The position numbers and the translations under genes were made by a program. Below the pieces are notes generated by a model. That model made no database searches, was not told the origin of the DNA, and was given only the letters and a program-made list of their open reading frames with translations. From a virus, in the IMG/VR virus record IMGVR_UViG_3300042520_002148, positions 1 to 26,547 of that record: a stretch of 26,547 nucleotides of DNA; one strand, written 5' to 3'. This document shows positions 5,860 through 26,546 of this stretch, one piece after another (position 1 is the stretch's first letter; every line of letters begins with the position of its first letter).

Positions 5860-5867
5860 TATTTATT
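5860..5867 (-). promoter_or_regulatory. Variant late promoter (AATAAATA) ahead of gp19
   Basis: The minus strand reads AATAAATA, fitting the NATAAATA form I recall for late promoters of marine T4-like phages. It is 22 bases upstream of the gp19 ATG and overlaps the gp18 stop codon. Confidence 0.5.
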
Positions 5868-8457
5868 AGAATTGGCCAACGATTTCAGAGAACTCAACCG
5901 AAGATCCAACACCAACGAAATTCAACTGGATGAAATTAATCGATCTTGCTGGTTTAATATAAATGTCTCCAACAAATTTAGCAGCGTCAACAATTTCAGC
6001 AGGGTTGTTTGTTTCGTCGCAAACAACTAGGAAATCAGTAATACCTCTTCTTCCAGCAACTTCCCGGAGGAAAGGTTCTACAATGTTCTTAAACTGCAGA
6101 CGTGTAAAGTCATCATTGAATTCGAACAGAAGCTGATTGGCTGCTGTGGCGATTGTCTTTTCGAGGATAATAAAGAGCCTTCTGACGTTAATATAATCGA
6201 AAGCACTTCCCTGTGAAAGAAGAGTTTTATCTCCGAAAAGAACTGTACCCTGACCTGGGAAAGTTACAACTGGGTTAATGTCAGCTGAGTAGAGAACGTC
6301 ACGCTGGGCTTTAGTTGGATTCCATGCAAGCTTGACAACGTTCTTGATAGCTCCGCGATTAAATCCAGCAGGAGAGAACCATGGATCTCTTACCTGATCG
6401 GTTCTTGCCGCTAGACCAGCGATATCTCCGTTGAGAGGAACCCAACGATACACATCATTGTATTTGTCATATTGATACTTGTATCCAGAGTCAAGAACAG
6501 CATAAGAAGAGTTTGTTAGAGCGTTTCTAAACGCAACAACATTGTCAGTTTCAGATCCTGGAGCGTTCACAACGTCACTCTTTTCGGGAGAAACGAACAC
6601 AACACAATCTTTTCTGACATCAGCAACGTTATCGATGATATAATTTGCCGCCTGAACTCCGTTTACTCCAGTTGGACGACCAGCAACCAAAAGGGCTACG
6701 TCAACTGAAGAAGTATCAGCAAATAGATCCCAAGCTGTAGCTAGATCAGCCATAGCTGCAGTAGATTCGGAAGAACCGTCGCGACCACCAATCATTGAGG
6801 CAGTAAATGGTGTTGTTTCTGTTGAAGAAGCTACATTTACCGCTGTGTTGGAAACTGCGCCAGTACGATCACCCGCAAACCAAACATATTTCGATAGAGA
6901 ATTAATAGCGTCTTTATAATAAGCTACTGTTCCATCCTGATTTTTTGCATCAGTCGCTCTGGAAAGATTAACGAAAGACTCTAGAACTGTTCCTGGAGTT
7001 CCAGAAATCTTGCCATCTTCATCAACAACTACCACAGAAACCTGATCCACCGCTGAAGACCCAACGTCTGAAACAGATTTAGATGTTCCAGGGGCTTTGC
7101 CGACAACATTCGAGTATTCCCAATAACGAGAAACTGTGTTGCCAGAAAATGATGTTGATAGTTTATATGGAGACTCAAAGGTTATTGTAAAGGTGGAAAC
7201 TCCTCCACCTGTTGTTGAAACAGAACCAAGGGATTTGATTTGCAGTTTTTGTTTGTTGATTGAGGTATTTCCGACCTCGATGTAATCACCAACAACCAGT
7301 TTATTTTTAATAGCAGCGGCCACATTAGATGCGTTTGGTACAGAAACAGAGTTGGTCACAAAAACATTAGCTGTTGACGCGCCAACATTTATTGTAATTC
7401 CAGATGGTCCTGGAACAACGCCTGCTGTTGAGTTGGTCGTTACTCCATCTGCAACAATAGCATATGGATTGATAACTGAGCTATATTGATCTGCTGTGTC
7501 TACAACCGAAACTTTTAGAGAATTTCCAAGTTCTCCGGGATATTTTGCAATCCATTTTATATTTGATGGGAAAGTAAGCGTATCATAATGGTCTGCGTTT
7601 TTAACAACAGCCTGTGTTCTGTTTGTTTGGGGGCTTGTGTTAGCAAAAGCGTTATATGAAACAGCAGAATCGCTGTAGTTTAATTCAGAAGCGGCGGTAA
7701 CAGAAGTCGTAGAAACAAGAAATGGAACAGATGACGTGCCTAATGTTGCGCTAGAAGAAATGGTTACTCTGGTATCAGTTGATCTTGTTAAACTGTGGCC
7801 TGATTCATTTGTTCCCGCGGTAAGAGTGATAACAGCACCATTAATCGTAGATGATAGCGAAAGAGTGGTGGAATTAGAATTTCTTACGAAATATGTGCCG
7901 TTGTTAGAAAGTCCAGAAATAGCGGTATTGCCTGCTGCTACCAGATATTTGACTCTTTCACCATCAGCAAAAGGATGTCCCCCAGAAATAGTAATTGTTC
8001 CATTGGCAGCAACTCCTGAAGAATTTGCTAAGAAATTGTTAGAAATAGTAGAATTGTTTACTGCGGTGACGAGAGTTCCATCAGCAATACCAATACCAAA
8101 AACAACTTGACCAACAGCAATATTAGCCGTATTAGAGTATGCTATGACTGTTGTGTTGCCAAGTAACGCACTTTCAACGTCAGTTGACACACCTGATGTT
8201 TTGGCGGCTCTTGAGACATACATTCTATTTGCATAAGCTAGAAAGTTTGCCGCAGAGAAGAACGTTTCGTAGTTATTAGCTGTGGGGCGACCATACTTTT
8301 CAACAAGCTGTGTTTCATTGGAAACCAGTGTTATTTTTCCAACTGGTCCCCAGGAAAATTGGCCAGCGATAGCTCCAGTGGAGGTCGCGTTTTGGGGTAC
8401 AGAAGTAACCAGTGAAACTTCTGTTACGTTAACTCCAGGACTTACTTGAAATGCCAT
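5866..8457 (-). CDS. gp18: Tail sheath protein gp18
   Basis: This 863-aa protein is the contractile sheath subunit. The N-terminus MAFQVSPGVNVTEVSLVTSV and following FSWGPVGKITLVSNETQLV are the standard T4-like sheath opening. The C-terminal third (about 560-863) holds the conserved core, including QGTVLFGDKTLL, NVRRLFIILEK and the terminal ARSINFIQLNFVG. It is about 200 residues longer than T4 gp18 (659 aa). The extra length lies in residues about 95-470, Thr/Ser/Asn-rich beta sequence that probably forms outward-facing domains. Residues 160-225 form a recognisable repeat-type module (HPFADG, then SGLSNNGTYFVR, then LTAGTNESGHSLT). TAGGAG precedes ATG 8457, and a late promoter lies at 8506-8513. 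Confidence 0.96.
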   Translation of the reverse strand: MAFQVSPGVNVTEVSLVTSVPQNATSTGAIAGQFSWGPVGKITLVSNETQLVEKYGRPTANNYETFFSAANFLAYANRMYVSRAAKTSGVSTDVESALLGNTTVIAYSNTANIAVGQVVFGIGIADGTLVTAVNNSTISNNFLANSSGVAANGTITISGGHPFADGERVKYLVAAGNTAISGLSNNGTYFVRNSNSTTLSLSSTINGAVITLTAGTNESGHSLTRSTDTRVTISSSATLGTSSVPFLVSTTSVTAASELNYSDSAVSYNAFANTSPQTNRTQAVVKNADHYDTLTFPSNIKWIAKYPGELGNSLKVSVVDTADQYSSVINPYAIVADGVTTNSTAGVVPGPSGITINVGASTANVFVTNSVSVPNASNVAAAIKNKLVVGDYIEVGNTSINKQKLQIKSLGSVSTTGGGVSTFTITFESPYKLSTSFSGNTVSRYWEYSNVVGKAPGTSKSVSDVGSSAVDQVSVVVVDEDGKISGTPGTVLESFVNLSRATDAKNQDGTVAYYKDAINSLSKYVWFAGDRTGAVSNTAVNVASSTETTPFTASMIGGRDGSSESTAAMADLATAWDLFADTSSVDVALLVAGRPTGVNGVQAANYIIDNVADVRKDCVVFVSPEKSDVVNAPGSETDNVVAFRNALTNSSYAVLDSGYKYQYDKYNDVYRWVPLNGDIAGLAARTDQVRDPWFSPAGFNRGAIKNVVKLAWNPTKAQRDVLYSADINPVVTFPGQGTVLFGDKTLLSQGSAFDYINVRRLFIILEKTIATAANQLLFEFNDDFTRLQFKNIVEPFLREVAGRRGITDFLVVCDETNNPAEIVDAAKFVGDIYIKPARSINFIQLNFVGVGSSVEFSEIVGQF

Positions 8458-8505: not shown

Positions 8506-8513
8506 TATTTATA
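8506..8513 (-). promoter_or_regulatory. T4-type late promoter for gp18
   Basis: There is an exact TATAAATA on the minus strand, 49 bases upstream of the gp18 ATG. It overlaps the stop codon of the terminase C-fragment, so sheath and tube can be expressed independently of the packaging genes. Confidence 0.8.
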
Positions 8514-9708
8514 AATTTTGCTTCTCCAAGTCTCTTTCTCCGAAAAAGGAACTGAACTCGTCTCTTTGTTTTTGGTCTAACATAGTTGGCATTTCATTTA
8601 TAATAATATCATCTTCTTCATTTCCAGAAGAATATATCCCAAACGGAAGCATTTCTTCTTCTAACATATTTTCGTTTTGCTCAAATATTCTTTTCCTAAT
8701 ATCCAGATCAGTAATTTCTTTAAAATAATGTTGTGTGGAAAGCCACGAGAAAAGAACGCAGCACATAGCTAAGTCATCATTGCCGCTTTCAGCCTCGTAA
8801 GAATTCCCTTTTTGAGAAAATCTTGACAACTCATAGATAGTTTCATAGTCTTCTATGATAAACTTATCAGACTCAACAAGAGTTTTGAGCGTAGCACAGC
8901 CGATTCTCTTAACCTGTTTTGTTGTCCGAATGCCCCTATGAGTTGAGGTGGCAAATCCACCCGAAAGAGATTGGCCCGCTCTTCCAGAATTAGCAGTAAC
9001 TAGAACGCCTTCGTATTCTAGATCATGATGCAGGATATCAGCAACCTGTTGGCCAATATCGTTAGTCTCCACCAACACCAAAGCGTCATTATATCTTTTT
9101 GCAGTTTCGTATATGATATTAGGATATACTAGAGGACTGATCAGGTTGTTCTTAAAAGTGCAGCATATTTTATATGGGAAAGTGTTGACATTCACAACAA
9201 TAAACGCTGAAGAGTCTTCTCCAACTCCTCTGGCCGTGTCTACAATGATGGCATAGATAACATTTTTTTCTGGCGGGTAATATTCTTTCAATCCTATTTT
9301 ATTGTTGATTGTTGGCGTTTTGTGGACCATTGCTCGAAGTTTTGTGGGGTGGATGAGAGTATTTGCCGAACCTAGGAATTCACAGTTATGAGAAACAATC
9401 CCGTTTGTGTAATATTCAAAATTTGGCACGCCAACAATATCATAATAAGTGTGCTCACCTTCCATGAGTTCAATGTGGTATATTCCAACCAAACCGTTTT
9501 TTGTGATAACCTTGTTTTCTGTTTTTAATCTTGAACACTCAATCCAACCAGAATCGGTTAATATGTTATGTTTAGGAGCACAAACCAAACGATTACCATT
9601 ATTTAAAACGAGTTCCATTTTACCACACTTCACAACCTTTTGCACACCAGCAAAATTTTTAAATCCGCTTGGTGTTAAAATTTCAAAATCTTGGTTCTTA
9701 TAGAACAT
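8509..9708 (-). CDS. gp17: Split large terminase gp17, C-terminal half fused to C-intein
   Basis: This 399-aa fusion has two parts. Residues 1-108 are the C-terminal part of a split intein. Residues 109-399 are the nuclease half of the T4-like large terminase. The terminase part starts with CEFLGSANTLI. It carries candidate RNase H-like metal-binding acids Asp157 (AIIVDTARG), Glu214 (LVLVETNDIG) and Asp311/Asp312 (SGNDDLAM). The first two are 57 residues apart, the same spacing as T4 D401 and E458. It cuts concatemeric DNA once trans-spliced to the ATPase half encoded at 10260-11183. ATG 9708 overlaps the endonuclease stop by 11 bases and has AGGA 8 bases upstream. The spliced protein would be 267 + 291 = 558 aa, versus 610 in T4. 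Confidence 0.95.
   Translation of the reverse strand: MFYKNQDFEILTPSGFKNFAGVQKVVKCGKMELVLNNGNRLVCAPKHNILTDSGWIECSRLKTENKVITKNGLVGIYHIELMEGEHTYYDIVGVPNFEYYTNGIVSHNCEFLGSANTLIHPTKLRAMVHKTPTINNKIGLKEYYPPEKNVIYAIIVDTARGVGEDSSAFIVVNVNTFPYKICCTFKNNLISPLVYPNIIYETAKRYNDALVLVETNDIGQQVADILHHDLEYEGVLVTANSGRAGQSLSGGFATSTHRGIRTTKQVKRIGCATLKTLVESDKFIIEDYETIYELSRFSQKGNSYEAESGNDDLAMCCVLFSWLSTQHYFKEITDLDIRKRIFEQNENMLEEEMLPFGIYSSGNEEDDIIINEMPTMLDQKQRDEFSSFFGERDLEKQNL
9385..9708 (-). other. C-intein (IntC) of the split TerL intein, 108 residues
   Basis: This is coding for residues 1-108 of the C-fragment. It opens MFYKNQDFEILTPSGF, close to what I remember of the AceL-TerL C-intein. Block B is NGNRLVCAPKHNILTDSGW, with His47 as the conserved His. 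Block F is around YYDIVGVPNFEYYTNG and block G is IVSHN followed by Cys+1. The usual TxxH of block B reads A-P-K-H, so the Thr is replaced by Ala44. All splicing blocks except A are in this fragment. The terminal His-Asn and the +1 Cys (codon 9384-9382) are intact, so it should be active. Confidence 0.92.
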
Positions 9709-10270
9709 TGCGTTTTCCTGTTATTATGTTGTATATCTGTTTGGCTGTTACATTATATTTAACAGAAAACGTCTTACTAAAAGCTGTTTCATATGATATG
9801 ATTTTTCCATTCTTGCTTTTTGTGCCAGCCTCTTTTATTTTTTGTTTTTTATTATATTGAGTTATTATTTCTTTACATTGTTCATCTGTTATCTTTAATG
9901 GAGAAAATCTTCTACCTTTTCTGGATACTTTAAACTTTTCAATTGTTTCTTCAGAAAAACATCCTTTTTTGTTTTTGTTCCAAGGAATTGTTCCTTTTTT
10001 GGCTCCACCAACACCAGGTCGTTTTTTTCCTTTTTGTATTTCTGACATATAGTTTGGCCCAAGACCAATTCTTTTTCCTATCAAAGCGGCTGCCGCCCAA
10101 TCACCTTGTTTAATGTGTATATCAAGATGCTCAAAAATAGAAATACATTTTAAATTATCAATAGAATTATTTTTTCTATTTCCATCTATATGATGAATTT
10201 CATACCTAAATCCATATTCATCAACTGGTATTTCGCCAAAATGCGATTCCCATATTTTTCTATAATGCAT
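9698..10270 (-). CDS. Free-standing HNH homing endonuclease with NUMOD3-like and HTH segments
   Basis: This 190-aa protein contains an N-terminal HNH motif: YEIHHIDGNRKNNSIDNLKC at 23-42, with His26/His27, Asn34/Asn35 and Asn39. Then comes a NUMOD3-like DNA-binding stretch (WNKNKKG then SEETIEKFKVSRKGRR, about 97-121). The C-terminus (about 126-188, ending KYNVTAKQIYNIITGK) looks like a helix-turn-helix. It probably cuts intein-less terL genes to spread the element. I place the start at ATG 10270 because GGAG lies 7 bases upstream; an upstream TTG at 10294 in the same frame is less likely. It overlaps the N-fragment by 11 bases (10260-10270) and the C-fragment by 11 bases (9698-9708). It is richer in Lys, Asn and Ile than its neighbours, which fits a mobile gene. 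Confidence 0.92.
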   Translation of the reverse strand: MHYRKIWESHFGEIPVDEYGFRYEIHHIDGNRKNNSIDNLKCISIFEHLDIHIKQGDWAAAALIGKRIGLGPNYMSEIQKGKKRPGVGGAKKGTIPWNKNKKGCFSEETIEKFKVSRKGRRFSPLKITDEQCKEIITQYNKKQKIKEAGTKSKNGKIISYETAFSKTFSVKYNVTAKQIYNIITGKRNVL

Positions 10271-11183
10271 TATTATTCTCCAAAGAATTAACAATCATAT
10301 TTATAAATTTATTGATTGTTAATTTCTTGGTTTTTCCTGTTTTTTTGTTTCTAACTGTTATTTGTGTTTTTCCGTCAACACACTCGTGTTCCTGCCTGAA
10401 TAGATCCTCAGAGGTGTTCGCAATGGTTTCTTCTTTCCACTTTTGGTCTCTTCCAGGAACCTGAGACCAGTGCACCTCAACTCTTTTATAGCTGTTTCTG
10501 CCTTCTTCTGATTCAACCCAGATCTTGTAAAACAGTTCCATACCTTTTGGCGTAGAGGTCATTACCAGCTGGGTTGTTTCACCCGAAGAAATAGTAGGAT
10601 AAACTGATGCGAAGAATTCTTCCTGTATATTCCTCTCGACGTGGGCAAATTCGTCCAAATATACGCATGAATAGGTATCACCACGAGCAGCGGAGGATGA
10701 GGTAGAAGTAGCCACAATCTTAGAGCCATTTTCTAGCTCAATGTTACCTTTGTTCCATTCAGTAACACCTTGCTGCATCCACTGTGGGAGGTTTTCGAAC
10801 ATCTTTTGGATTCTATCCAGGATTTCTCGGGCTTTTTTGTCTTTGTTGGCCAGAATAGCCACGCTATAATGCTCGTTGAAAAGAACTCGCCAAAGAATAA
10901 ATCCAGCAGTTGTGGTTGTTTTTCCGACCTGACGAGGCATCTTACAGATAACGAATCGGTTATCTGAATAGGCACTTATCATTTCTTTTTGGAAGGGATG
11001 CAGTTTAAAGTTTACAAGTCCACGGTCAACGTGGATAATTTTACAGTAAGTTTCAATAAAGTAAATGGCATCTTCTTTACACCTGATCATTTCACGAATA
11101 CGATCTGGCGTCCACTCTATGGCAATGTTAGATTTCTTTAGTTTTTTATTGCCGAGGTAAGAAGTTTTCTTTGCTGGTTGCAT
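10260..11183 (-). CDS. gp17: Split large terminase gp17, N-terminal ATPase half fused to N-intein
   Basis: This is a 307-aa fusion. Residues 1-267 are the packaging ATPase domain of T4-like gp17. The Walker A-type loop is MPRQVGKTTT (82-91), Walker B is VYLDEFA (174-180, acids Asp177/Glu178), and the coupling motif is TSTPKG (209-214). Residues 268-307 are a 40-residue N-intein beginning at Cys268, directly after RQEHE. Alone it lacks the nuclease domain, so function requires trans-splicing to the product of 8509-9708. ATG 11183 is one base after the gp16 stop (TAGTATG), so the two terminase subunits are translationally coupled. The N-extein ends about 49 residues before the first nuclease Asp, near the ATPase-nuclease hinge. 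Confidence 0.95.
   Translation of the reverse strand: MQPAKKTSYLGNKKLKKSNIAIEWTPDRIREMIRCKEDAIYFIETYCKIIHVDRGLVNFKLHPFQKEMISAYSDNRFVICKMPRQVGKTTTTAGFILWRVLFNEHYSVAILANKDKKAREILDRIQKMFENLPQWMQQGVTEWNKGNIELENGSKIVATSTSSSAARGDTYSCVYLDEFAHVERNIQEEFFASVYPTISSGETTQLVMTSTPKGMELFYKIWVESEEGRNSYKRVEVHWSQVPGRDQKWKEETIANTSEDLFRQEHECVDGKTQITVRNKKTGKTKKLTINKFINMIVNSLENNNAL
10263..10382 (-). other. N-intein (IntN) of the split TerL intein, 40 residues
   Basis: This encodes Cys1 through residue 40 of the intein. Block A is CVDGKTQITVRNKKTGK with catalytic Cys1, followed by a Lys/Asn-rich tail. No block B is present: it lies in the C-fragment. Typical split inteins have an N-part of about 100 residues carrying both A and B. 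The short N-part resembles AceL-TerL, whose N-part I recall as about 25 residues. The last 15 codons double as the promoter and ribosome-binding site of the endonuclease gene. Confidence 0.9.
10298..10305 (-). promoter_or_regulatory. Late promoter embedded in the N-intein, ahead of the endonuclease
   Basis: There is an exact TATAAATA on the minus strand, inside N-intein coding sequence and 28 bases upstream of the endonuclease ATG. That spacing matches the gp22 (29) and 116-aa gene (29) promoters here. It would allow transcription of the endonuclease and terL-C separately from gp16 and terL-N. Confidence 0.65.
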
Positions 11184-15168: not shown

Positions 15169-15518
15169 TATTCATCCGTATCAGGTTTGGGGGGAGCCCA
15201 AGGAAGCTCTTCTTCTTTTACTTCTTCAACAACATTTTTCTTTTGATCAATTTGTTCTTGAATTTTTTCTTCGACATGATCTTTGTATCCACCAACAACT
15301 TGATCTTTAATCCAACCAAGAACCATCTCTTCTGTTAGATCTTCATAAGCTGTAAAGTTTTCCCCTTCTGGCGCTTTAAATGGAGTGGCCCCGTTGAAGG
15401 TTCCAGAATTTCCATCCTCATCAGTGCCAGTAAGCTCCCAATAAGTTTGAATAACAACATTTTCTAGATTACCAGAATTTGTTTTCTTGAGAGACTTAAG
15501 TTTCCAGGTATATATCAT
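15168..15518 (-). CDS. Conserved small protein downstream of tail fibre (116 aa)
   Basis: This 116-aa protein has a beta-type N-terminal half ([33 protein letters not shown]). [15 protein letters not shown] follows at about 60-75. The C-terminus is charged and helical, with a Pro-rich end (PWAPPKP). The pattern 'W..T..D.. ... DLTEE.V..W.K' is one I associate with small uncharacterised proteins next to tail-fibre genes in T4-like cyanophages. It overlaps the 1929-aa fibre gene by 4 bases (ATGA-type). A late promoter at 15547-15554 lies 29 bases upstream, inside the end of the fibre gene. It could be a fibre-assembly accessory factor, which is inference. Confidence 0.78.
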
Positions 15519-18500
15519 AATTTCTCCTTTATCATTTGTTCTAATCTATTTATATGAGCTTGCTGTTCTTTGATTGCCTGAACAAGATATGCTATCAGTC
15601 CTCGTTCTCTGAGGGATAAAGAACCATCGAAATCTCTGACGAGATCTGGAATAACTTCCTGGACTTCTTGGGCAATAAAACCAACATCATTCACAAGATT
15701 TACTTGTGAGTTTTGTGGGGTTTCCTCTTTCCAGTCAAATGTAACTGGACGAAGTTTTAATATTTTATCTAGTGCATTAGGAAGATCTTGAATATTTTCT
15801 TTGAACTTCCTATCTGATGGTGTTCCGTATGCAGTAATGTTTGCAAGGGCTATGAAGTTTCCGCTAGAGTCAAAAGAGAAATGGTTGGTCGAGCCGTTAT
15901 TACCAGACATGTAGAGAGTTCTACCATTATCTACATAAAGTCTAAAGCGTTCTGCACTAGTTGCGTTAGCAAATATCAGATAAGAAGTGTTTGTGCCACT
16001 AGAATATATAGATAGCGCCGAATATCCATTTCTTGCAAATAAATATTGTTGGGCGTTTGTGAGTCCATAAGTGTATATATTTTCGCCAGCTTCGTTATCT
16101 AAGATTAGTGTGCCACCATCTTGAAACTGAATATATCCGTTTCTGGTATTATTTGCTCTTCTCCACTCATAATATGGATTAGCAAATTTGGCACTTGCTG
16201 GATTGTTAAACACCATATTATAAACTTGTGATGTTGATGCAGGATCCAGATAGTAAGAAGTATTATTACTGTCATAAAATATTGGAGAACGCATATCAAC
16301 GTTAGCAGTTACATTCCCAGAAGAGTTTACTGAAAGTCTTACTGTGTTAGCTGTAGCAAAAGAAATAGTTCCGTTTGAGTCGGTTCCAAAAAGCATGCTT
16401 AATGAAAGACCATTACCATTTCCAGCCCACATGTTCCAAGTTAAATTACTAGGATTGCTTGTTGTGCTATAGTTCCAATAAAAAGATGTTCTTGGAAAAC
16501 TATTTTGCGCGCTTGCATTAGTAATGACGTCAGGTGGCGTCCAATGATAACCTATCCAGAAAGGAGAGTTAGCGTCTAAACCGCCGACATTATTAATGTC
16601 CATACGAACATTGTTGTCTTTTTGAAATTGAGCATAACCTCCAGTGAGATATAGAGCGGCAGTACCAGCTCCAGCTGTATATCTGCCTCTAATTACGCCG
16701 TTAACATCTAGAGTATAATCTGGAGTTACTCCTCCTACGCCAACTCTTCTGGTAGAACCTGCCACACGAAGATTTTCATTATATGCGCTTCCCGACCAGT
16801 TTCTTATAACCAGATCGTTACTTTCTCCTTCAACCGCAACGTTTGGAGTTCCATCTGTACTGGAGTCAGTGGTAAATGCTACTTTTCTCGTTCCACCAGT
16901 AAACCAAGCGTCGCCGTTTGCCCATATTACACCCTGTGGTACCGATGTAGAACCACCAAGTGCAAGGTTTGCAAACACAGAAGTTCCTTGAGGATCTGCG
17001 CGATATGCAGTGTCCGCAGTATCATAAAATACAGGGGCTCTCATATCAACACTGGCAATTACGTTGCCACTATTGTTAATTTTTAATCTTTCAGTTACGC
17101 TTAATGGACCAACTGAAGATCCACCCGTACCAAAACTTAATCCTTCGTTATTATTTCCATTAAATTGTATGTAAGCGTGCCAAGTTACATCAACTAATTG
17201 TTGCAATCTCCAGCCAGACGTTGACCAATCACTACCATTACTATTACGAATTTTGAAGAAATTGAGATAATCCGCATTAGATGTAGAAGTTTGTAACCTA
17301 AGAAGTAGCTTTGTATTGCCTTGAGTTGTGCCCAGAGAAGAATCATTTGCATGAATTCGATAATCTGCACTTGTTGTGCCAGCACCAATACTTCCTGCAA
17401 AAATTCCGGAAGTAGTAGAGTTTGATGGATCAATATAATATGCTGTATTGTTACTGTCATAAAATATTGATGATCTAATATCAGGGGCGTAAAACACTCC
17501 TGATGGATATGTCTCAAATCTGCTAAGACCAGCTGTACCATCGTACAGACCAATCATATCATCACTGTCTCTGCCAAAAATATATGCGTTTCTTCCAGTG
17601 AATTGCCATTGTATAGTTTTCTCAGCGCTTGCGGAGTTAAAGTTAATATTTCCAAGGAGACTTAAACTAGTCCCAGTTGATGATGGATCAACGTAATATC
17701 CTGTATTATTAAGATCATAAAAAATATTTGCTCTTACCGAAGAATCGGTATAAAAACCGCCTCGTATTGTTCCGCCATAAGCATAATAAAAATTATTCCC
17801 AGCATAATAATTAATATATGTATCTAGACCAGAAGCAGCATCTATGTGCAAATTACCGTTTGTTGTCGCAACACTAGCATAAGAAGCACTGGCGTGACCA
17901 TCTGTTCCTATTGACAGATATGCAGACCAGGAAGTATTTGGTCCAAAAAGAGCACCACCTCTCATCCGTAAAGCTGTATTTGAGGTGCTGGCAGGATCTA
18001 TATAATACGATGTGTTGTTGCTGTCATAAAAAATTGGAGCGCGGAGAGAATCTGTAGCCTGTAAATAGTTGCGATTAGTAGTTATAATTCCAAGATGATC
18101 AATTGTTAATGCAGTTTTAGAGCCTGCTGCAAACGAATCCGTGGTAGCCAAATACATTTTAGTGCCATATGAACCAGAAGATTGAACATAGACACCAGCC
18201 TGTGCACCACTAGCACCCCAACCCCATGTTATTGCTTGAGCATTATCAGCAGTAGCTTGTCCAGTAAAATTTAATTGATATTCAGTAATACCTGGTGTAG
18301 TAGTATTGATCGACTGGGATCCAGAAGGAATATTAATTTTATTAATTATTGATGTACTTGCTGGATCAACGTAATATCCTGTATTATTGCTGTCATAATA
18401 TATTGGAGAGCGTATATCAACGCTGGCAGTTATGTTGCCCGAAGCGTTAATTTCCATTCTTTGTGTATTTGTGGTACCAAATAAAATCGAGCTATTGTCT

Positions 18501-21304
18501 TTATTAAACAGCCTTAATCCACCGCTAAATCTTAGTTCTGTTCTATCATTAGCAACAGCATCGGTAAGATTTAAAACAGTTGCAACGTCAAATCTTGTTA
18601 ATGCACTACCTGATCTTCGCACAGTAAATTGATAACTGCTAGCCGTAAATGCATCATTATAAACAACAAGATTTAGTGTAGAATTTCCTGCTTCAAATCT
18701 CCAGTTTTTCTCATTGGTACCTGCATCAACATCTCTAAGATCAAAAAACGGATAGTTGGATGTTGAAATAAATCCAGCATCTGAAGTTTTGTTTACTTGC
18801 ACATATGGGGAATAAACATCTACTCCAGTAACAGTAGTTCCAGAACGATAAAAATTCATAGCTATTGTTTCAGAGTTATAGGCGTCATTTACTGCACGTA
18901 AACTAAGCGTTCCTCCACCATCACCAATCATTCTCCATCGTTTTTGATCTGTCGTAGCATCATTCTCATACCACTCAAAATACGGAGCATTAGAGTAGGC
19001 AGCAAATTGTTGTGCTAATAAACTACCATTAGAATCCCGAACAGCTACAGTATTAACAGTTGTGGATGTTGAGGTATTATAACCATCCAACAAGTCTGCA
19101 TCTAAGCCAGAACCTGCACCATCATTGCCAGAATGCCACATCAAGTTAGAGGTATTGTTAAAATAAATAGCTCCTGTTCCTGAGTAGATTAATGAGGTAG
19201 AATTAAAAGCTCCGCCCAATATAGCCGAAGCATTGCCTATTGCAACTGAAGTAACACCGCCATATTGAACAGAAACATAAGAACCTCCATTAGTTCCAGA
19301 ATTGTTACCATTAACAATAATTCCAGCCTCAGAAGTAGCTCCTGTTCCAAACGTTTGACTGCCTGTGATGGCTAAACGAGCAAATCCAGACGAATTAATG
19401 CCATCTAACAAATCAGCGTCTAATCCAGAGCCTGAGCCATCGTTGCCAGCATGCCAGACTGTGCTTCCGTTCACTTTAAAGGCTTTTCCAGAAGCTAATT
19501 CTATACCAGTGCTATCAAAATATCCTAGGCTAGAAGGGGTTGATCCATCAGGACTAAACAAGAAATGCATTCTTCTGGTGCCCGAAATCTCAACAGGAAC
19601 AAATCTTAATTTTGTTCCTACTGTATTATCAGTCAGGTCAAACAAATTGCTGTTTGTGGCCATTTGAATATTTTGTGTTCCGCTCCATGTATTAGTACCA
19701 TTCAACAGAGGAATAGTACCACCAGAAGTTCCTATGTTATAACCGTCCAACAAATCAGCGTCTAATCCAGAGCCAGATCCATCGTTCCCAGCGTGCCAAA
19801 TTAAGTTAGAGGTTCCTGCATATAAAACGCCTGCATTCGTCATTCTGAAACCAGTTGAAGCGTTTGAAGCTCCATAACGTATATCAAAACCCCAAGTTCT
19901 TGATCCTAACCACGAATATGCTCCATCTCCACCAGAGACGTCAAGAATTGATTGAGAATTGCCAACAGTTAATCCAATACTGTTTGCTCCGCCATTAGTA
20001 ATTGTTTGCGTAGCACCCCACGTATTAGTGCCATTCAGTAGAGGAACTGCTCCACCAGAAGTTCCAATATTATAACCATCTAATAAATCTGCATCTAAGC
20101 CAGAACCTGATCCATCGTTCCCAGCGTGCCAAAGTTTATTGGAATTTATAAATGGGTTGCCAGAAGAATCAAACTGAAGCCATGCAGTCGCGCCACGATA
20201 TAATATAAGTTGATCCGCGTCTGGTTTTCCTATAGCCCAATCGGTACCTGAACTATAAAACCTTAAGTATGCTCCATTTGATAAAGTTAGTGGGTATGTT
20301 ACTGTGCCATATGTGTTTACGCCGCTCCAAGTATTGTTTGTTCCAAGGATGCTCGCGCCCGAAGATCCGGTGAAACCGATATCGCCCTTTGATCCAGTAA
20401 ATCCTGTCGAGCCAGTGAAACCGATATCGCCCTTTGATCCAGTGAAACCGATATCACCTTTAGATCCTGTTAGACCAACAGAACCAGTGAAACCGATATC
20501 ACCTTTAGATCCTGTAAATCCTGTCGAGCCAGTAAATCCTATGTCACCCTTTGAACCAACAAAGCCGACAGATCCAGTAAATCCAGTGGGTCCTGTGGGT
20601 CCTGTGGCACCTAACGAACCTGTAAATCCATTAGAACCCGTAAATCCAGTAGGACCAGTTGGGCCAGTTGGGCCTGTTGCTCCTAATGAACCAGTAAAAC
20701 CGATATCTCCTTTAGATCCAACAAAACCGACTGATCCTGTGAATCCAGTAACGCCTTGTATTCCCTGTGATCCTGTAAATCCTGTGACGCCTTGAATACC
20801 TTGAGAACCTGTAAAACCAGTAGCTCCTTGAGGTCCAGTAGGGCCTGTAGGACCAGTAGCACCCAGCGAACCAGTAAAACCAGTTACTCCTTGAATGCCT
20901 TGAGATCCGACAAATCCTGCAGATCCAGTAAATCCAATGTCACCCTTTGAACCTGTGAAACCAATGTCGCCTTTAGATCCAACAAATCCAACAGAACCAG
21001 TATAACCAAGTGGGCCTACCTGCCAAGATCCATCACCTCTTAGCCATGTTGTTGTGTTGGCGGTTCCAGAACCAAGACGAGCAGTGCCTACTGTTCCTGT
21101 GCTGATATTAGTGGCGTTAAGTTGGGTTAATCCTGTACCAGATCCGACGAACCCAGTTGCGTGGACATTTCCGGCAAACGTTACTGTGTTTGCAATTGTT
21201 GTTGATACTTCAACAAAAACTGTATTGTTTGCATTCGAATCAACGAAATTAATGTTAGAAGTTTGTAGTCCATTTTTGACTACAAATTTTTTATCATTTG
21301 CCAT
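15515..21304 (-). CDS. Giant tail fibre/spike with collagen-like stalk and S74 chaperone
   Basis: The order of domains in this 1929-aa protein is as follows. An N-terminal virion-binding segment (1-96) contains [19 protein letters not shown] collagen-like stretch of 74 uninterrupted Gly-X-Y triplets spans 97-318. A region with four HAGNDG...LDADLLDG repeats spans about 390-740. A long beta-rich shaft with six FYDSNNT..YY.DP repeats spans about 960-1690. A C-terminal intramolecular chaperone domain (S74 type) spans 1830-1929. The S74 catalytic dyad would be Ser1830 and Lys1835 in SDRKFKENI. The domain trimerises the shaft and then cuts itself off. The N-terminus is typical of phage fibres, but which T4 fibre it replaces cannot be told. 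A late promoter lies 36 bases ahead of ATG 21304. Confidence 0.93.
15518..15817 (-). other. Peptidase S74 intramolecular chaperone domain
   Basis: This encodes the last 100 residues of the 1929-aa fibre. SDRKFKENI carries the Ser nucleophile (TCA at 15817-15815) and the Lys five residues later. LRPVTFDWK and [16 protein letters not shown] are the standard S74 core segments, and a C-terminal coiled coil follows. Cleavage is expected just before Ser1830, releasing the chaperone after trimer folding. Confidence 0.92.
15547..15554 (-). promoter_or_regulatory. Late promoter inside the fibre gene end, ahead of the 116-aa gene
   Basis: There is an exact TATAAATA on the minus strand within the S74-domain coding sequence. 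It is 29 bases upstream of ATG 15518, the same spacing as the other late promoters here. Confidence 0.65.
16240..18420 (-). repeat. Six-copy FYDSNNT..YY.DP protein repeat in the fibre shaft
   Basis: Six copies of R(S/A)[15 protein letters not shown], spaced unevenly (roughly 260-740 bases), mark joints between shaft segments. The fifth copy (near 17030) has diverged to [13 protein letters not shown]. Such motifs recur in fibres of T4-like phages. Confidence 0.85.
19080..20135 (-). repeat. Four-copy [14 protein letters not shown] fibre repeat
   Basis: Four copies of [19 protein letters not shown] (one with WHSGNDGAG), about 330-340 bases apart, each start a fresh beta-rich block. It is a common tail-fibre motif and a likely site of recombination between fibre genes. 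Confidence 0.85.
20351..21016 (-). repeat. Collagen-like repeat: 74 uninterrupted Gly-X-Y triplets
   Basis: Residues 97-318 of the fibre are a perfect Gly-X-Y run. The frequent units are [18 protein letters not shown] and GATGPTGPT. Proline is found only in the X position, and Thr, Ser, Lys or Ile dominate position Y. A triple helix of about 222 residues per chain would make a stalk roughly 60 nm long. That length is my estimate from standard collagen rise. Confidence 0.95.
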
Positions 21305-21584: not shown

Positions 21585-24500
21585 CTAGGCTATTAATAAC
21601 ATTTCTGAAGTTTTGTATTGGGTAGAGTTAGTCGTAGTTCTTGTCGCCATCAGCCTGACATTTCCTGCTGATATATCCACATCATATGTAGCTAATGCTG
21701 CAGAGCCTGTAAACACCACACCATATTCGGTAGATGATGCTGTGGTTCCATTGTGGGCTACCAGTAGTTCAGATATTTGGACTTCGCCAGTGACAGAGTC
21801 GTAAGCCTGGACCATTAGTTTACCAGAACGGAAAGAAGCAGAAGCGAAAGACGCAACCTGAGTTTTGGTTGTTGTTGCCAGAGTTGTAGCTTCTGATGTC
21901 GTTACCAAATTTGTATTGTGTGTAATCTGAGAAGCTGTCAACGGAGCATCTGCAGAATCGTCTGCAAGACGAACATTAATTGCTGTTCCGTTGCGTTTTA
22001 AGGCAGGGAAGCTGGATGTTGAGCCGCTGAAACGCATGATAGGGGTAGTTGCGCCCAATGAAAATGTTGCGTTTGCGGAGCTACTAGCAAAAGCCCATAG
22101 TGTATTAGTATTGTCGGCGTTGTTGATGTTAAGCGTGCTAATTACGCCGTTTGTCAACTTTGTATCTGTACCTACAATAACTGACGTTACAAAATACCCT
22201 GTTCTAGGTCTATTTGCGCCGCTTGCGCCGATGTCATATGTGTTGTCTGCATGAGCTAACATATGACCAGTAGATGTTACTCTCCAACGATCAGTATTAT
22301 TTGTACGAATATAAAAATCTGAAGTGCCCGCAGTACCAATTTGCAGATCTCTGCTTGTTCCTGTTCCTGCTCGCTCAGTTAAAATTTGCAGTGTATTCGA
22401 AGTCCAATTAATTCCAAGACGTTCGTAGTTACTCGCATCCGTAAATGTGTTATAAGATTTCAACGTTTGAGCAGTCGTAGCTGTACGAAATTCCGTAGTA
22501 TTTTGTCCTGATGTTACCAGAGATCCTGTTGTTGCTTCATTATTGATAGTAATATCTGCAATTCCAGTTTGTATCAATCTAAGATTAGATGTTGCTCCAC
22601 TTGGAACAGTAGCTCTAAATCCACTATTATCAATTAAACTATTATAAGTTGAAGATGTGCCTCTGTAAATATCGCCTGCAACAGAAAGTTTGTGAGTTGG
22701 CGCAGTGTTGCCTATTCCGACATCGCCTGTTGTGTTTTTAATAGTAATTGCAGTGGCTGTTCTTGGCCTAATAAAAATGTCACCGCCAGTTGACGCTACT
22801 GTATCAAGATACAATTCAGAGGTTGCGCGAATACCGCTACCATTTATGACTGATAAACTTGCACCCCCAACACCCTGAAACACAATATTATCACTAATTG
22901 CGTGTAAAGCCGCCGAAGGTGTTGTTGTGTTAATACCAACTCTGTTATTTGTTGCGTCAACAAAAAGAACACCCGAATCAACGTTAACGTTACCAGATAT
23001 TGTTTGTAGAGTTCCGGAAAGAGTTGCATTTCCTCCAACCTGTAGTGTAGAAGATACGTTAGCAAATCCAGTAATCGTAGTATTTCCAGTTGATAGAGTG
23101 GTTAGAGTACCAACCGAAGTCAGCGAAGAGCTTACAATCCCAGTTCCCAGAGCAGTTGAGTTAACAACAACAGCACCATTAATCTGATAGCTCTTGGTTG
23201 AAACAAGATTTAGATGCTCTGAAGAAGTCCAGGCATCAGTCGCATCAACCCAATTAAAGGTTTTGTCTGTCGCGCCTTTGAGAGTGATACCACCACCATC
23301 TGCCGTCACATCACTTGGTGTGGTTACGTCTCCGAGAACAATATTCTTATCTTCAACAACAAGATTTGTTGAGTTGACGTTTGTGGTTGGTCCATTGAAG
23401 AACACGTTTCCAGAAACAACAAGATCGCCAGTAATCGTGGTATTTCCGAATGTTCCGGAGCCTGTTGCAATGCTGGAAGAGTTGATAACTGTGTTAACAG
23501 TTGAGTTGCCAATTTGAATCACAGAAGTATTGACGTTGACATTAGACCCAACGTTCAGAACACTGGTTACATTAACTGTTGCAGGAAGTCTAGCAGTGTT
23601 TAACGTGCCCGAAGAAATATTATCTGCGTTTGAAGCGAACGTAGTAGCATTCGAGTAAGCCAGAGCAGCGTTGCCTGAGTATGCAATAGCGTTACTGTAG
23701 GCTGTTGCTGCATTGCTAGTAATAGCAGTATTAACGTTTACTCCATTGATCGTAATAGTAGCAGCACTTATTACAGTATTGATGGTAGAGTTACCAATCT
23801 GTATTGTTGAAGTATTGACGTTTACGTTAGCTCCAACATTTATCACAGTTGAAACATTAACTGTTGCTGGCAATCTAGCAGTGTTTAGAGTGCCAGAAGA
23901 AATATTATCAGCGTTTGCCGAGAAAGCTATTGCGTTAGCATAAGCCAGAGCCGCATTTCCTGAATAAGCTATGGCATTAGAGTAAGCTGTCGCCGCGTTG
24001 CTGGTGATAGCAGTATTAACATTGACACCATTGATTGTTATTGTGGCCGCACTGATAACAGTATTAACAGTGGAGTTTCCGATAAACAGAGTAGAAGTAT
24101 TGGCATTAACATTGGAGCCAATATTGAAAGCTGTTGATACGTTTACGGTGGCTGGCAGTCTAGCAGTGTTAAGCGTTCCTGATGAAATACTATCAGCGTT
24201 GATTGTTGTTATGTTGCTTCCGTTACCGCTGAAGCTATTTGCTGTGATAACGTTAGCTTGGAAATTAGCTATTCTGAAAGAAGCATTGCTGGTGTCAATA
24301 TAAGCGCTTGCGTCAGGCTCAGGAGTATAGCTATCAAAAACTTTCCAGATGCCATCAGTTGCATCGCGGAAGAAACCAGCATGTTTGTAAGAACCATCAT
24401 TATAGTTTCCGGCAAATCCAAGATCAGGATTAGAAGTTGTTGATCCATCGTTAAGATAGATCATGTTATCTTCAACAGCTAAATTTGTTGCGCTGATGGT

Positions 24501-26546
24501 AACAGTTGTTCCTGAAACAGTCAGGTTGCCGTCGATCTGAACGTCACCTCTAATAGTAACGTTATTGGCAGCAAGATTAGAAACAACGTTGGCGCTTGCA
24601 TTAATCGTTAGATTTCCGTTTAGAGTTCCGCCAGACAATGGCAGGAACGTGGAATTTACATAAGTGTTAGAAGCAGCATAAGCAGTAGCGTTTGAATAAG
24701 CCGTAGCAGCCTTTGCATCTGCATAAGTAACAGCATTAGAGTAGGCCGTAGCAGCGTTTGAAGTGATAGCTGTGTTGACATTAACTCCGTTAATGGTGAT
24801 AGTTGCAGCGCTTATAGCGGTATTGACAGTAGAGTTTCCGATAGACAGAGTTGTTGTGTTAAGAGAAACGTTCGAACCAACAGTAACAAGAGCAGAGTTT
24901 ACGCTGACGCTTGCATTGACAAATCCAGTTACGGTCAGGTTTCCAGAAGTAACTGAATTGAGAACGTCTAGAGTACTGCCGAAATAAACGTTGCCGTTTA
25001 CTGATAATTTGTGGGTTGGTGCGCTGTTGCTTATACCAAAATTACCCGTGTTAGAAAATCCAGCAAATAAAACTGAACCATTACTAAATTCCACTGGAAG
25101 ATCGCTTGTTATCCACTCAGAAGAAACCACCCCTCTTCTTGCTCCGCCACTACTTGCAAATATAACAGATCTTTGAGATCTAGAGGAGCTCGAACCAATC
25201 ATCACAATATGATTGGATACAGATACACCACCAGCCCCTAAGTCTGATCCGCTATAAGTTCCAAATGATCCATATCCAGCAACAAACACGTTGCGCGGTC
25301 TTGTGGCATTGCTCGCGCCGATGTCGTAGGTGTTGTCAACTTCCGCCGTCAGGTGGCCATTGGAATTAACACGCCATCTAACTGTCCCAGCGGACATAAA
25401 CCCAAGATTTGTTCCAGACCCATTGGAGCCGATGATAAGGCTTCGCGCAGCTCCTGTGCCTGCCGCAAGCGTTTCCACAAACGCTGTGTTTGCAGACCAT
25501 AAGATGTTTAGCCGCTCATAATTGCTCGAGTCAGTGTATGTATTGTAAATCCTAAACGTTTGAGCGTTCGTGCCCCGCCGCTGGGCGAGGATGTCTGCTG
25601 CATCACGAGCAAGAACAATATCATTAGAGGAACCCAAAGAGATAACACTAGTGTTTGATGTTGCTCTAAAATTTTGCGCTGCATAAACTGTGGCTGCTGT
25701 TATACTTGTATATCCACTATCATCGGCAAGTCTTACATCTATCTCAGCGCTATTGCGCTTGAGAGCGGGGAAACTTGAGGTTGTGCCACCAAACTGGAGA
25801 CGGTTGAAGTCTGTTGAACCGTTATTGTATAATCCTAAAACTCCATCACTTGGAGAAAGAATTCTGCTTCTTCCATTAAATATAAATGTTCCTGTGGCCC
25901 CAGCAAAAAAATTAGCTGCAGTTACAGTATCGCCGACAGTTACGTTTGTGCCAACATAAACGTTTCTTGGCCTATTTGCTCCATTTGCGCCGATGTCGTA
26001 GGTATTATCTGTTGCTGCCGTGAAATGACCACTACCATCAACAATCCAGCGATTGTTTGAGCTACCTGTTTGTAAAAGTACCTGAGCTCCTCTTACAGCA
26101 AAGTTTCTATTAGAACCAGTTCCTGCTGCTTCGTATCCAACAAATCCTAAATTATTTTCAGTAGCAGAAAGCACAACTCGTTCATAGTTGGAAGCGTCAG
26201 TGTATGTGTCATAGACTCTAAGAGCTTGGGCGTTTGTACCATTGCGTTGCGCCAAAATACCAGCAGCATCTCGAGCTAGAATGGTGTCAGCACTAGAATA
26301 TGACGATGTTGCATTTCCCCACGATATAATCGCGTCAGACTTTAAAAATGCCCCATATTGCGAGAACCAAGCCCGACCGCCAGCCAGATATCCATCATCA
26401 GAAGCGGTAACAATACCAGCTTTGGAAACCTTAAATTTGCTGCTTCCGCCAACTTGTAGATCCATCAACAAACTATTACTGTTAGAAGCAGTATCCGTCG
26501 CATTGATTTTAAATGCGGTAAATGTATTGGCGGTCGCATTCCATGT
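21585..26546 (-). CDS. Long tail-fibre protein, N-terminus beyond the right edge
   Basis: The frame is open to the window edge, so 1653 residues are visible and the true start lies outside. The TTG at 26471 is not the start, because the 25 residues upstream (ATANTFTAFKINATDTAS) continue typical fibre text. The shaft is built from modules. One is SNYERL...RWRV...NTYDIGA.GANRPR (at least three copies). Another is a set of 95-residue repeats (NISSGTLNTARLPATVN to TITINGVNVNTAITSNAATAYSN). Two others carry ATNLAVEDNMIYLNDG and STNLVVEDKNIVLGD. The C-terminal 120 residues (from about ASQITHNTNLVTT) form a distinct end domain. No S74 domain is present. The role is probably a long or side tail fibre. 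Confidence 0.88.
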   Translation of the reverse strand, partial: TWNATANTFTAFKINATDTASNSNSLLMDLQVGGSSKFKVSKAGIVTASDDGYLAGGRAWFSQYGAFLKSDAIISWGNATSSYSSADTILARDAAGILAQRNGTNAQALRVYDTYTDASNYERVVLSATENNLGFVGYEAAGTGSNRNFAVRGAQVLLQTGSSNNRWIVDGSGHFTAATDNTYDIGANGANRPRNVYVGTNVTVGDTVTAANFFAGATGTFIFNGRSRILSPSDGVLGLYNNGSTDFNRLQFGGTTSSFPALKRNSAEIDVRLADDSGYTSITAATVYAAQNFRATSNTSVISLGSSNDIVLARDAADILAQRRGTNAQTFRIYNTYTDSSNYERLNILWSANTAFVETLAAGTGAARSLIIGSNGSGTNLGFMSAGTVRWRVNSNGHLTAEVDNTYDIGASNATRPRNVFVAGYGSFGTYSGSDLGAGGVSVSNHIVMIGSSSSRSQRSVIFASSGGARRGVVSSEWITSDLPVEFSNGSVLFAGFSNTGNFGISNSAPTHKLSVNGNVYFGSTLDVLNSVTSGNLTVTGFVNASVSVNSALVTVGSNVSLNTTTLSIGNSTVNTAISAATITINGVNVNTAITSNAATAYSNAVTYADAKAATAYSNATAYAASNTYVNSTFLPLSGGTLNGNLTINASANVVSNLAANNVTIRGDVQIDGNLTVSGTTVTISATNLAVEDNMIYLNDGSTTSNPDLGFAGNYNDGSYKHAGFFRDATDGIWKVFDSYTPEPDASAYIDTSNASFRIANFQANVITANSFSGNGSNITTINADSISSGTLNTARLPATVNVSTAFNIGSNVNANTSTLFIGNSTVNTVISAATITINGVNVNTAITSNAATAYSNAIAYSGNAALAYANAIAFSANADNISSGTLNTARLPATVNVSTVINVGANVNVNTSTIQIGNSTINTVISAATITINGVNVNTAITSNAATAYSNAIAYSGNAALAYSNATTFASNADNISSGTLNTARLPATVNVTSVLNVGSNVNVNTSVIQIGNSTVNTVINSSSIATGSGTFGNTTITGDLVVSGNVFFNGPTTNVNSTNLVVEDKNIVLGDVTTPSDVTADGGGITLKGATDKTFNWVDATDAWTSSEHLNLVSTKSYQINGAVVVNSTALGTGIVSSSLTSVGTLTTLSTGNTTITGFANVSSTLQVGGNATLSGTLQTISGNVNVDSGVLFVDATNNRVGINTTTPSAALHAISDNIVFQGVGGASLSVINGSGIRATSELYLDTVASTGGDIFIRPRTATAITIKNTTGDVGIGNTAPTHKLSVAGDIYRGTSSTYNSLIDNSGFRATVPSGATSNLRLIQTGIADITINNEATTGSLVTSGQNTTEFRTATTAQTLKSYNTFTDASNYERLGINWTSNTLQILTERAGTGTSRDLQIGTAGTSDFYIRTNNTDRWRVTSTGHMLAHADNTYDIGASGANRPRTGYFVTSVIVGTDTKLTNGVISTLNINNADNTNTLWAFASSSANATFSLGATTPIMRFSGSTSSFPALKRNGTAINVRLADDSADAPLTASQITHNTNLVTTSEATTLATTTKTQVASFASASFRSGKLMVQAYDSVTGEVQISELLVAHNGTTASSTEYGVVFTGSAALATYDVDISAGNVRLMATRTTTNSTQYKTSEMLLIA
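23500..24190 (-). repeat. 285-bp tandem repeats in the upstream fibre gene
   Basis: Matching landmarks recur at exact 285-base steps. TCTAGCAGTGTT (third copy near-identical) starts at 23589, 23874 and 24159. GAAGTATTG starts at 23524, 23809 and 24094. Each copy encodes 95 residues (SSGTLNTARLPATVN, INGVNVNTAITSNAATAYSN). A fourth, more diverged partial copy lies near 24700-24850. Confidence 0.85.

What the first reader, a model, noticed from the sequence alone, without database searches (positions are those of the whole stretch)
8509..11183. Packaging ATPase/nuclease gp17 can only be made by protein trans-splicing
Seen: the ATPase half ends RQEHE then Cys plus a 40-residue N-intein. The nuclease half starts with a 108-residue C-intein ending SHN, followed by CEFLG. 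A separate HNH gene lies between. Known: the ATPase and nuclease domains of T4-like TerL work as one chain, and fractured genes with split inteins exist in phages, including TerL from an Antarctic lake (AceL-TerL). Inferred: phage packaging depends on this intein. A whole 'N-half, endonuclease, C-half' TerL locus in its full late-gene context is rarely available.
Basis: partly seen in the sequence, partly recalled or inferred. Interest (0 to 1): 0.88.

Follow-up and report, generated by a model that had tools for sequence, protein, structure and literature searches.

The report
Phage packaging motor split by intein
A T4-like virus carries its DNA-packaging motor gene in two pieces, each tipped with half of a self-splicing protein element and separated by a DNA-cutting gene; the arrangement is real and mobile, but the same kind is already present and annotated in several cultured phages.

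Summary
TerL (gp17) is encoded as an ATPase half (10260-11183, minus) ending RQEHE|C plus a 40-residue N-intein tail, an HNH endonuclease gene (9698-10270), and a nuclease half (8509-9708) beginning with a 108-residue C-intein ending SHN|CEFLG. The genes overlap by 11 nt at each junction. A close relative without the insert (L003) reads RQEHE|CEFLG straight through, so the element is a clean 998-bp insertion. Cys1 and the terminal Asn are kept in all 45 distinct loci occupied at this site. The C-intein matches the solved atypical TerL intein Cat (6dsl) in sequence and predicted fold. Trans-splicing to a 558-aa TerL is very likely, though not demonstrated. Trees show repeated gain or loss, as expected of homing. 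The 'rarely available' claim is wrong: Aeromonas phage PX29 (annotated N- and C-intein), Yersinia phage TG1, Providencia PSTRCR_127 and Serratia 92A1 have split TerLs in complete genomes with no second TerL. Verdict: new member of a known kind. Side results are more unusual: HNH and GIY-YIG endonucleases at this site share one C-terminal module, and some relatives encode TerL in three pieces with two split inteins.

The parts
10383..11183 (-). N-extein: TerL residues 1-267, ATPase (Walker A RQVGKTT at 84, Walker B VYLDEF at 174, coupling motif TSTPKG at 209)
   Evidence: Pfam Terminase_6N 2.8e-27; T4 gp17 3ezk 5.8e-63; motif positions
10263..10382 (-). N-intein (Cys1 + block A) and tail, 40 codons; conserved part about 30 residues
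10260..10270 (-). 11-nt overlap of N-half stop and HNH start; GGAG at 10278-10281, 7 nt before the HNH ATG
9698..10270 (-). HNH endonuclease, 190 aa: 'intron-like' HNH half (about 1-80) plus C-terminal module (about 83-183) shared with GIY-YIG enzymes at the same site
   Evidence: HNH_3 4.3e-12; phrog_12324 4.3e-21
9698..9708 (-). 11-nt overlap of HNH stop and C-half start; AGGA at 9716-9719, 7 nt before the C-half ATG
9385..9708 (-). C-intein, 108 aa (block-B His47, Asp90, terminal Ser106-His107-Asn108)
   Evidence: CatC 6dsl 2.8e-12; fold match to 6dsl, gp41-1, VidaL; invariant residues
8509..9384 (-). C-extein: TerL nuclease, 291 aa from CEFLG plus stop; Asp157, Glu214, Asp311/312 of the C-half align with conserved acids of T4 gp17
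   Evidence: Terminase_6C 3.4e-11; 3ezk 1.9e-32; fold 3c6a
9385..10382 (.). The inserted element as a whole, 998 bp, absent from empty allele L003
11185..11586 (-). gp16 small terminase, upstream neighbour
   Evidence: phrog_445 1.5e-28
5866..8457 (-). gp18 tail sheath, downstream neighbour
   Evidence: Pfam sheath domains

Best explanation
A mobile split intein of the atypical TerL type sits at the ATPase/nuclease junction of a T4-like gp17 gene (T4 position T353|A354). The ATPase half, the endonuclease and the nuclease half are translated from three overlapping, probably translationally coupled genes. The short N-intein tail docks on the folded C-intein. Class-1 splicing (Cys1 thioester, transfer to Cys+1, Asn108 cyclisation) joins the halves into a 558-aa TerL and removes the intein pieces. 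At DNA level the HNH protein most likely cuts intein-free terL alleles at this site in co-infecting phages and drives copying of the 998-bp unit by recombination (homing). Shown: anatomy, empty allele, conserved catalytic residues, fold match, sporadic and tree-incongruent distribution. Inferred: splicing itself, need for splicing in packaging, translational coupling, cutting specificity.
For: Sequence anatomy. Empty alleles join exactly at the splice point. Cys1 and terminal Asn in 45 of 45 distinct site-c loci, His-Asn in 43, +1 residue Cys in 36 and Thr in 9. CatC E 2.8e-12 and fold match E 7e-8, TM 0.74 by target. Purifying selection on intein and HNH against L112: pN/pS 0.16-0.23. At least 8 changes of occupancy on the extein tree, occupied and empty alleles being nearest neighbours three times: window/L003, L004/L015, L002/L018. 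Extein tree rejects placing L084/L085 with the window group (p 2e-6), whereas the C-intein tree groups them with it. A contiguous version, L085, exists in one frame with no stop. No Rfam intron.
Against: No splicing or cleavage was measured. The window is a fragment. The split falls between two domains that could fold alone. In one AU test the C-inteins of L084/L085 were not shut out of a looser alternative placement (p 0.33). Reduced synonymous divergence of the element against L112 is weak and partly explained by gene overlap.
Confidence: 0.9

Rival explanations
1. Gene in pieces without splicing: the two halves associate non-covalently and package DNA as a two-chain TerL, the intein pieces being remnants or docking devices (as reported for a split ribonucleotide reductase interrupted by a homing endonuclease, cited in PMC10448857).
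For: The break lies at the ATPase/nuclease boundary (T4 T353|A354), so both halves keep complete active sites.
Against: Intein catalytic positions are kept across 45 diverged loci and pN/pS of the intein parts against L112 is about 0.2; a mere dock would not need Cys1, the block-B His and the His-Asn end. Relatives of the same type splice in vitro (AceL-, GOS-, Cat-TerL; PMC11766414).
Confidence: 0.07
2. RNA-level removal: the 998 bp is an intron with an intron-encoded endonuclease, the exons being joined at RNA level.
For: HNH enzymes of this type live in T4 introns (phrog_12324 'intron-like'); RNA splicing of terL beside an endonuclease exists in phage ICP1 (PMC10448857).
Against: No group I/II match in Rfam; the insert ends code for conserved intein residues, and a contiguous in-frame relative exists (L085).
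Confidence: 0.01
3. Pseudogene or decaying locus, packaging being done by a second terL outside the contig.
For: The window is an incomplete record.
Against: Purifying selection in both exteins; identical and related contigs keep it; a 97-kb relative and seven complete split-TerL phage genomes hold only one TerL.
Confidence: 0.02

Closest known systems
AceL-TerL, GOS-TerL and consensus Cat-TerL atypical split inteins (PMC11766414, PMC13014065; PDB 6dsl)
   Same: TerL host, short N-piece (25/37/30 aa) and about 104-115 aa C-piece, Cys1/Cys+1 chemistry in AceL and Cat; CatC is the best intein match by sequence and fold, and its match runs on through the CEFLG extein start, suggesting the same insertion site
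   Different: About 37% identity in the fold alignment; here the endonuclease gene and the late-gene neighbourhood are visible
Aeromonas phage PX29 17A/17B (NC_023688)
   Same: Same TerL site; split gp17, annotated 'putative N-intein' and 'C-intein', complete genome
   Different: GIY-YIG endonuclease fused to the C-half instead of a separate HNH gene
Providencia phage PSTRCR_127 and Serratia phage 92A1
   Same: Same TerL site; N-half, intervening ORF, C-half with overlaps, in complete genomes
   Different: Intervening ORF about 237 aa, annotated hypothetical; about 31% identity over the C-intein region
Yersinia phage TG1 gp17 / endonuclease / gp17 (NC_028820)
   Same: Same three-gene order between gp16 and gp18 in a complete genome
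   Different: Different site in TerL (after residue about 178)
Fractured genes with free-standing endonucleases (Dassa et al. 2009, cited in PMC12350094; not held here)
   Same: Host gene broken into two, each with half an intein, endonuclease gene between (from memory of that paper)
   Different: Endonuclease is HNH, not the new endonuclease family of that paper (from memory)

Membership tests
Atypical split TerL inteins (AceL/GOS/Cat type) | N-fragment of about 15-40 aa starting with Cys or Ser | tested here: met
   40-aa tail starting Cys; 27-46 aa in most relatives
Atypical split TerL inteins (AceL/GOS/Cat type) | C-fragment of about 104-115 aa with block-B His and His-Asn end, Hint fold | tested here: met
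   CatC 2.8e-12; fold match 6dsl
Atypical split TerL inteins (AceL/GOS/Cat type) | Same insertion site in TerL as AceL | tested here: inconclusive
   AceL itself not held; match to CatC extends into the CEFLG extein start
Atypical split TerL inteins (AceL/GOS/Cat type) | Trans-splicing activity | not testable with these tools
   Needs co-expression
T4-type TerL (gp17) | ATPase and RNase H-like nuclease domains with catalytic motifs, beside gp16 | tested here: met
Homing endonuclease-driven mobile intein | Precise empty alleles, sporadic distribution, incongruent trees | tested here: met
Homing endonuclease-driven mobile intein | Endonuclease cuts the empty site | not testable with these tools
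   Needs purified protein
Endonuclease family of the first fractured genes (EDHD, from memory) | Vsr-like endonuclease domain | tested here: not met
   HNH_3 only
Group I/II intron | Intron RNA structure | tested here: not met
   No Rfam intron match up to E 1

The most novel reading that the evidence does not exclude
The TerL junction is targeted by a family of composite elements whose endonucleases keep one shared C-terminal, probably DNA-recognising, module while swapping the cutting domain (HNH or GIY-YIG). Repeated invasion of other TerL sites by other inteins has in some relatives (L087, L107, probably L103/L104) left TerL in three polypeptides that need two different trans-splicing reactions to make the packaging motor.
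Probability: 0.6. Interest if true: 0.5.

Novelty: new member of a known kind. Interest (0 to 1): 0.33.

Why it matters
It places an atypical split TerL intein, of the sort used in protein labelling, in its native late-gene setting, with a near-isogenic empty allele and a contiguous relative of the type, so homing and the origin of splitting can be tested directly. As a phenomenon (split-intein TerL with an endonuclease) it is already in annotated cultured phages, which are the better experimental systems.

Tried and rejected
Group I/II intron: no Rfam hit (two sub-threshold microRNA matches are noise). Second TerL in the window: none. Fold search of the HNH model: no significant PDB match, so the C-terminal module has no structural name; Pfam sees a NUMOD3 motif in L128 and weakly in L087. 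NCBIfam: nothing useful. Synonymous-codon test for recent transfer against L112: exteins saturated, N-intein and HNH somewhat above (z about 3), weak and confounded by overlap. Whole-window megablast: no close cultured relative. The Dassa 2009 paper is not held.

Full report
Observation. The three minus-strand ORFs are exactly as described. The first carries the TerL ATPase (Terminase_6N 2.8e-27; T4 gp17 5.8e-63), the last the RNase H-like nuclease (Terminase_6C 3.4e-11; gp17 1.9e-32), the middle an HNH endonuclease. Neighbours gp13, gp14, gp15, gp16 upstream and gp18, gp19, gp20, gp21 downstream give the T4 late order. Walker A, Walker B and coupling motif lie in the first piece, the nuclease acids in the second. 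The junction corresponds to T353|A354 of T4 gp17, near the end of the ATPase domain.

Not chance. L003, a contig with 95% and 87% identical TerL halves, has no insert and reads ..RQEHE|CEFLG..; the DNA alignment is colinear on both sides and lacks exactly the 998 bp from 10382 to 9385. Among the nearest TerL loci that hold both halves, only L002 and L004 carry the element. Two further contigs (L082, L083) are practically identical to the window, and L112 (97 kb) holds the same unit at 74-85% protein identity.

The intein. The C-intein matches the solved consensus atypical TerL intein CatC (2.8e-12). The AlphaFold model of the C-half (mean pLDDT 78) matches RB49/T4 gp17 nuclease and also 6dsl, gp41-1 and VidaL inteins. 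In 45 distinct site-c loci Cys1 and the final Asn are always present, His-Asn in all but two, +1 is Cys (36) or Thr (9), and N-tails are mostly 27-40 aa. Published relatives have N-pieces of 25 (AceL), 37 (GOS) and 30 (Cat) aa and splice in trans (PMC11766414, PMC13014065). pN/pS of intein pieces and HNH against L112 is 0.16-0.23.

Gene arrangement. N-half stop and HNH start overlap by 11 nt, as do HNH stop and C-half start; GGAG and AGGA stand 7 nt before the HNH and C-half start codons, inside the preceding reading frames, and the second overlap is kept at DNA level in the near relatives. Translational coupling is inferred from this.

The endonuclease. Its first 80 residues resemble the 'intron-like' HNH enzymes of T-even phages. 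Residues 83-183 are shared, at 47-55% identity, with GIY-YIG enzymes in the same place in other TerLs. Relatives found over nearly their full length almost all lie at this TerL site; relatives elsewhere mostly share only the HNH half. The simplest reading is a site-specific recognition module with an exchangeable cutter; DNA binding itself was not tested.

Mobility. On a tree of exteins alone, occupancy changes at least eight times, with occupied and empty alleles as nearest neighbours (window/L003, L004/L015, L002/L018). L084/L085 have exteins of another clade (placement with the window group rejected, p 2e-6) but C-inteins grouping with the window's (97/95 support). L085 is nearly the same intein as L084 but contiguous and without endonuclease, so splitting and fusing have happened within this group; the direction is not settled.

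Comparison with the known. Cultured phages already show the kind: PX29 17A/17B with annotated N- and C-intein, PSTRCR_127 and 92A1 and EniLVp02, with no room for an endonuclease (409-nt insert), all at this site; TG1, JK32 and Thanatos-2 at another site. None of these complete genomes has a second TerL above the family cut-off. The finding is therefore a new member of a known kind; the claim of rarity fails. Dependence of packaging on splicing is likely but inferred.

Beyond the window. TerL is hit by inteins at several sites, among them after residue 88 (in Walker A), after about 178-184, and after 267. In L087 and L107 both the first and the last of these are split, so TerL is in three pieces, each piece ending or beginning with intein halves; L103/L104 look similar and carry two further contiguous inteins. 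I found no report of a naturally three-piece TerL in the papers searched, which is not proof of absence.

Noticed in passing
L087 5299-8753; L107 4773-8158: TerL encoded in three pieces with two split inteins, one inside the Walker A motif (GK|C...HN|S/T) and one at the ATPase/nuclease junction.
   Followed up: partly
L104 456-8148 (149-kb contig), also L103: TerL with two split inteins plus two contiguous inteins (one at the STPKG motif, one near the C-terminus).
   Followed up: partly
L085 5116-7182 versus L084 4531-7206: Nearly the same intein at the same TerL site, contiguous and without endonuclease in L085, split with HNH gene in L084: a natural pair for how split inteins arise or revert.
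   Followed up: partly
L087 6977-7543, L090, L092, L094, L098: GIY-YIG endonucleases in the place of the HNH gene, sharing its C-terminal 100 residues (47-55% identity): cutter swapped, recognition-like module kept.
   Followed up: partly
L198 (Vibrio phage EniLVp02): Split TerL intein at the same site with no endonuclease gene at all (409-nt insert).
   Followed up: no
window 15515-21304 (-): 1929-aa tail-fibre-like protein with collagen-type GFTGSKGDI repeats and a C-terminal S74 chaperone domain.
   Followed up: no
window 21585-26546 (-): Repetitive protein of at least 1653 aa with NTAITSNAATAYSNA-type repeats, no Pfam match, running off the contig end.
   Followed up: no
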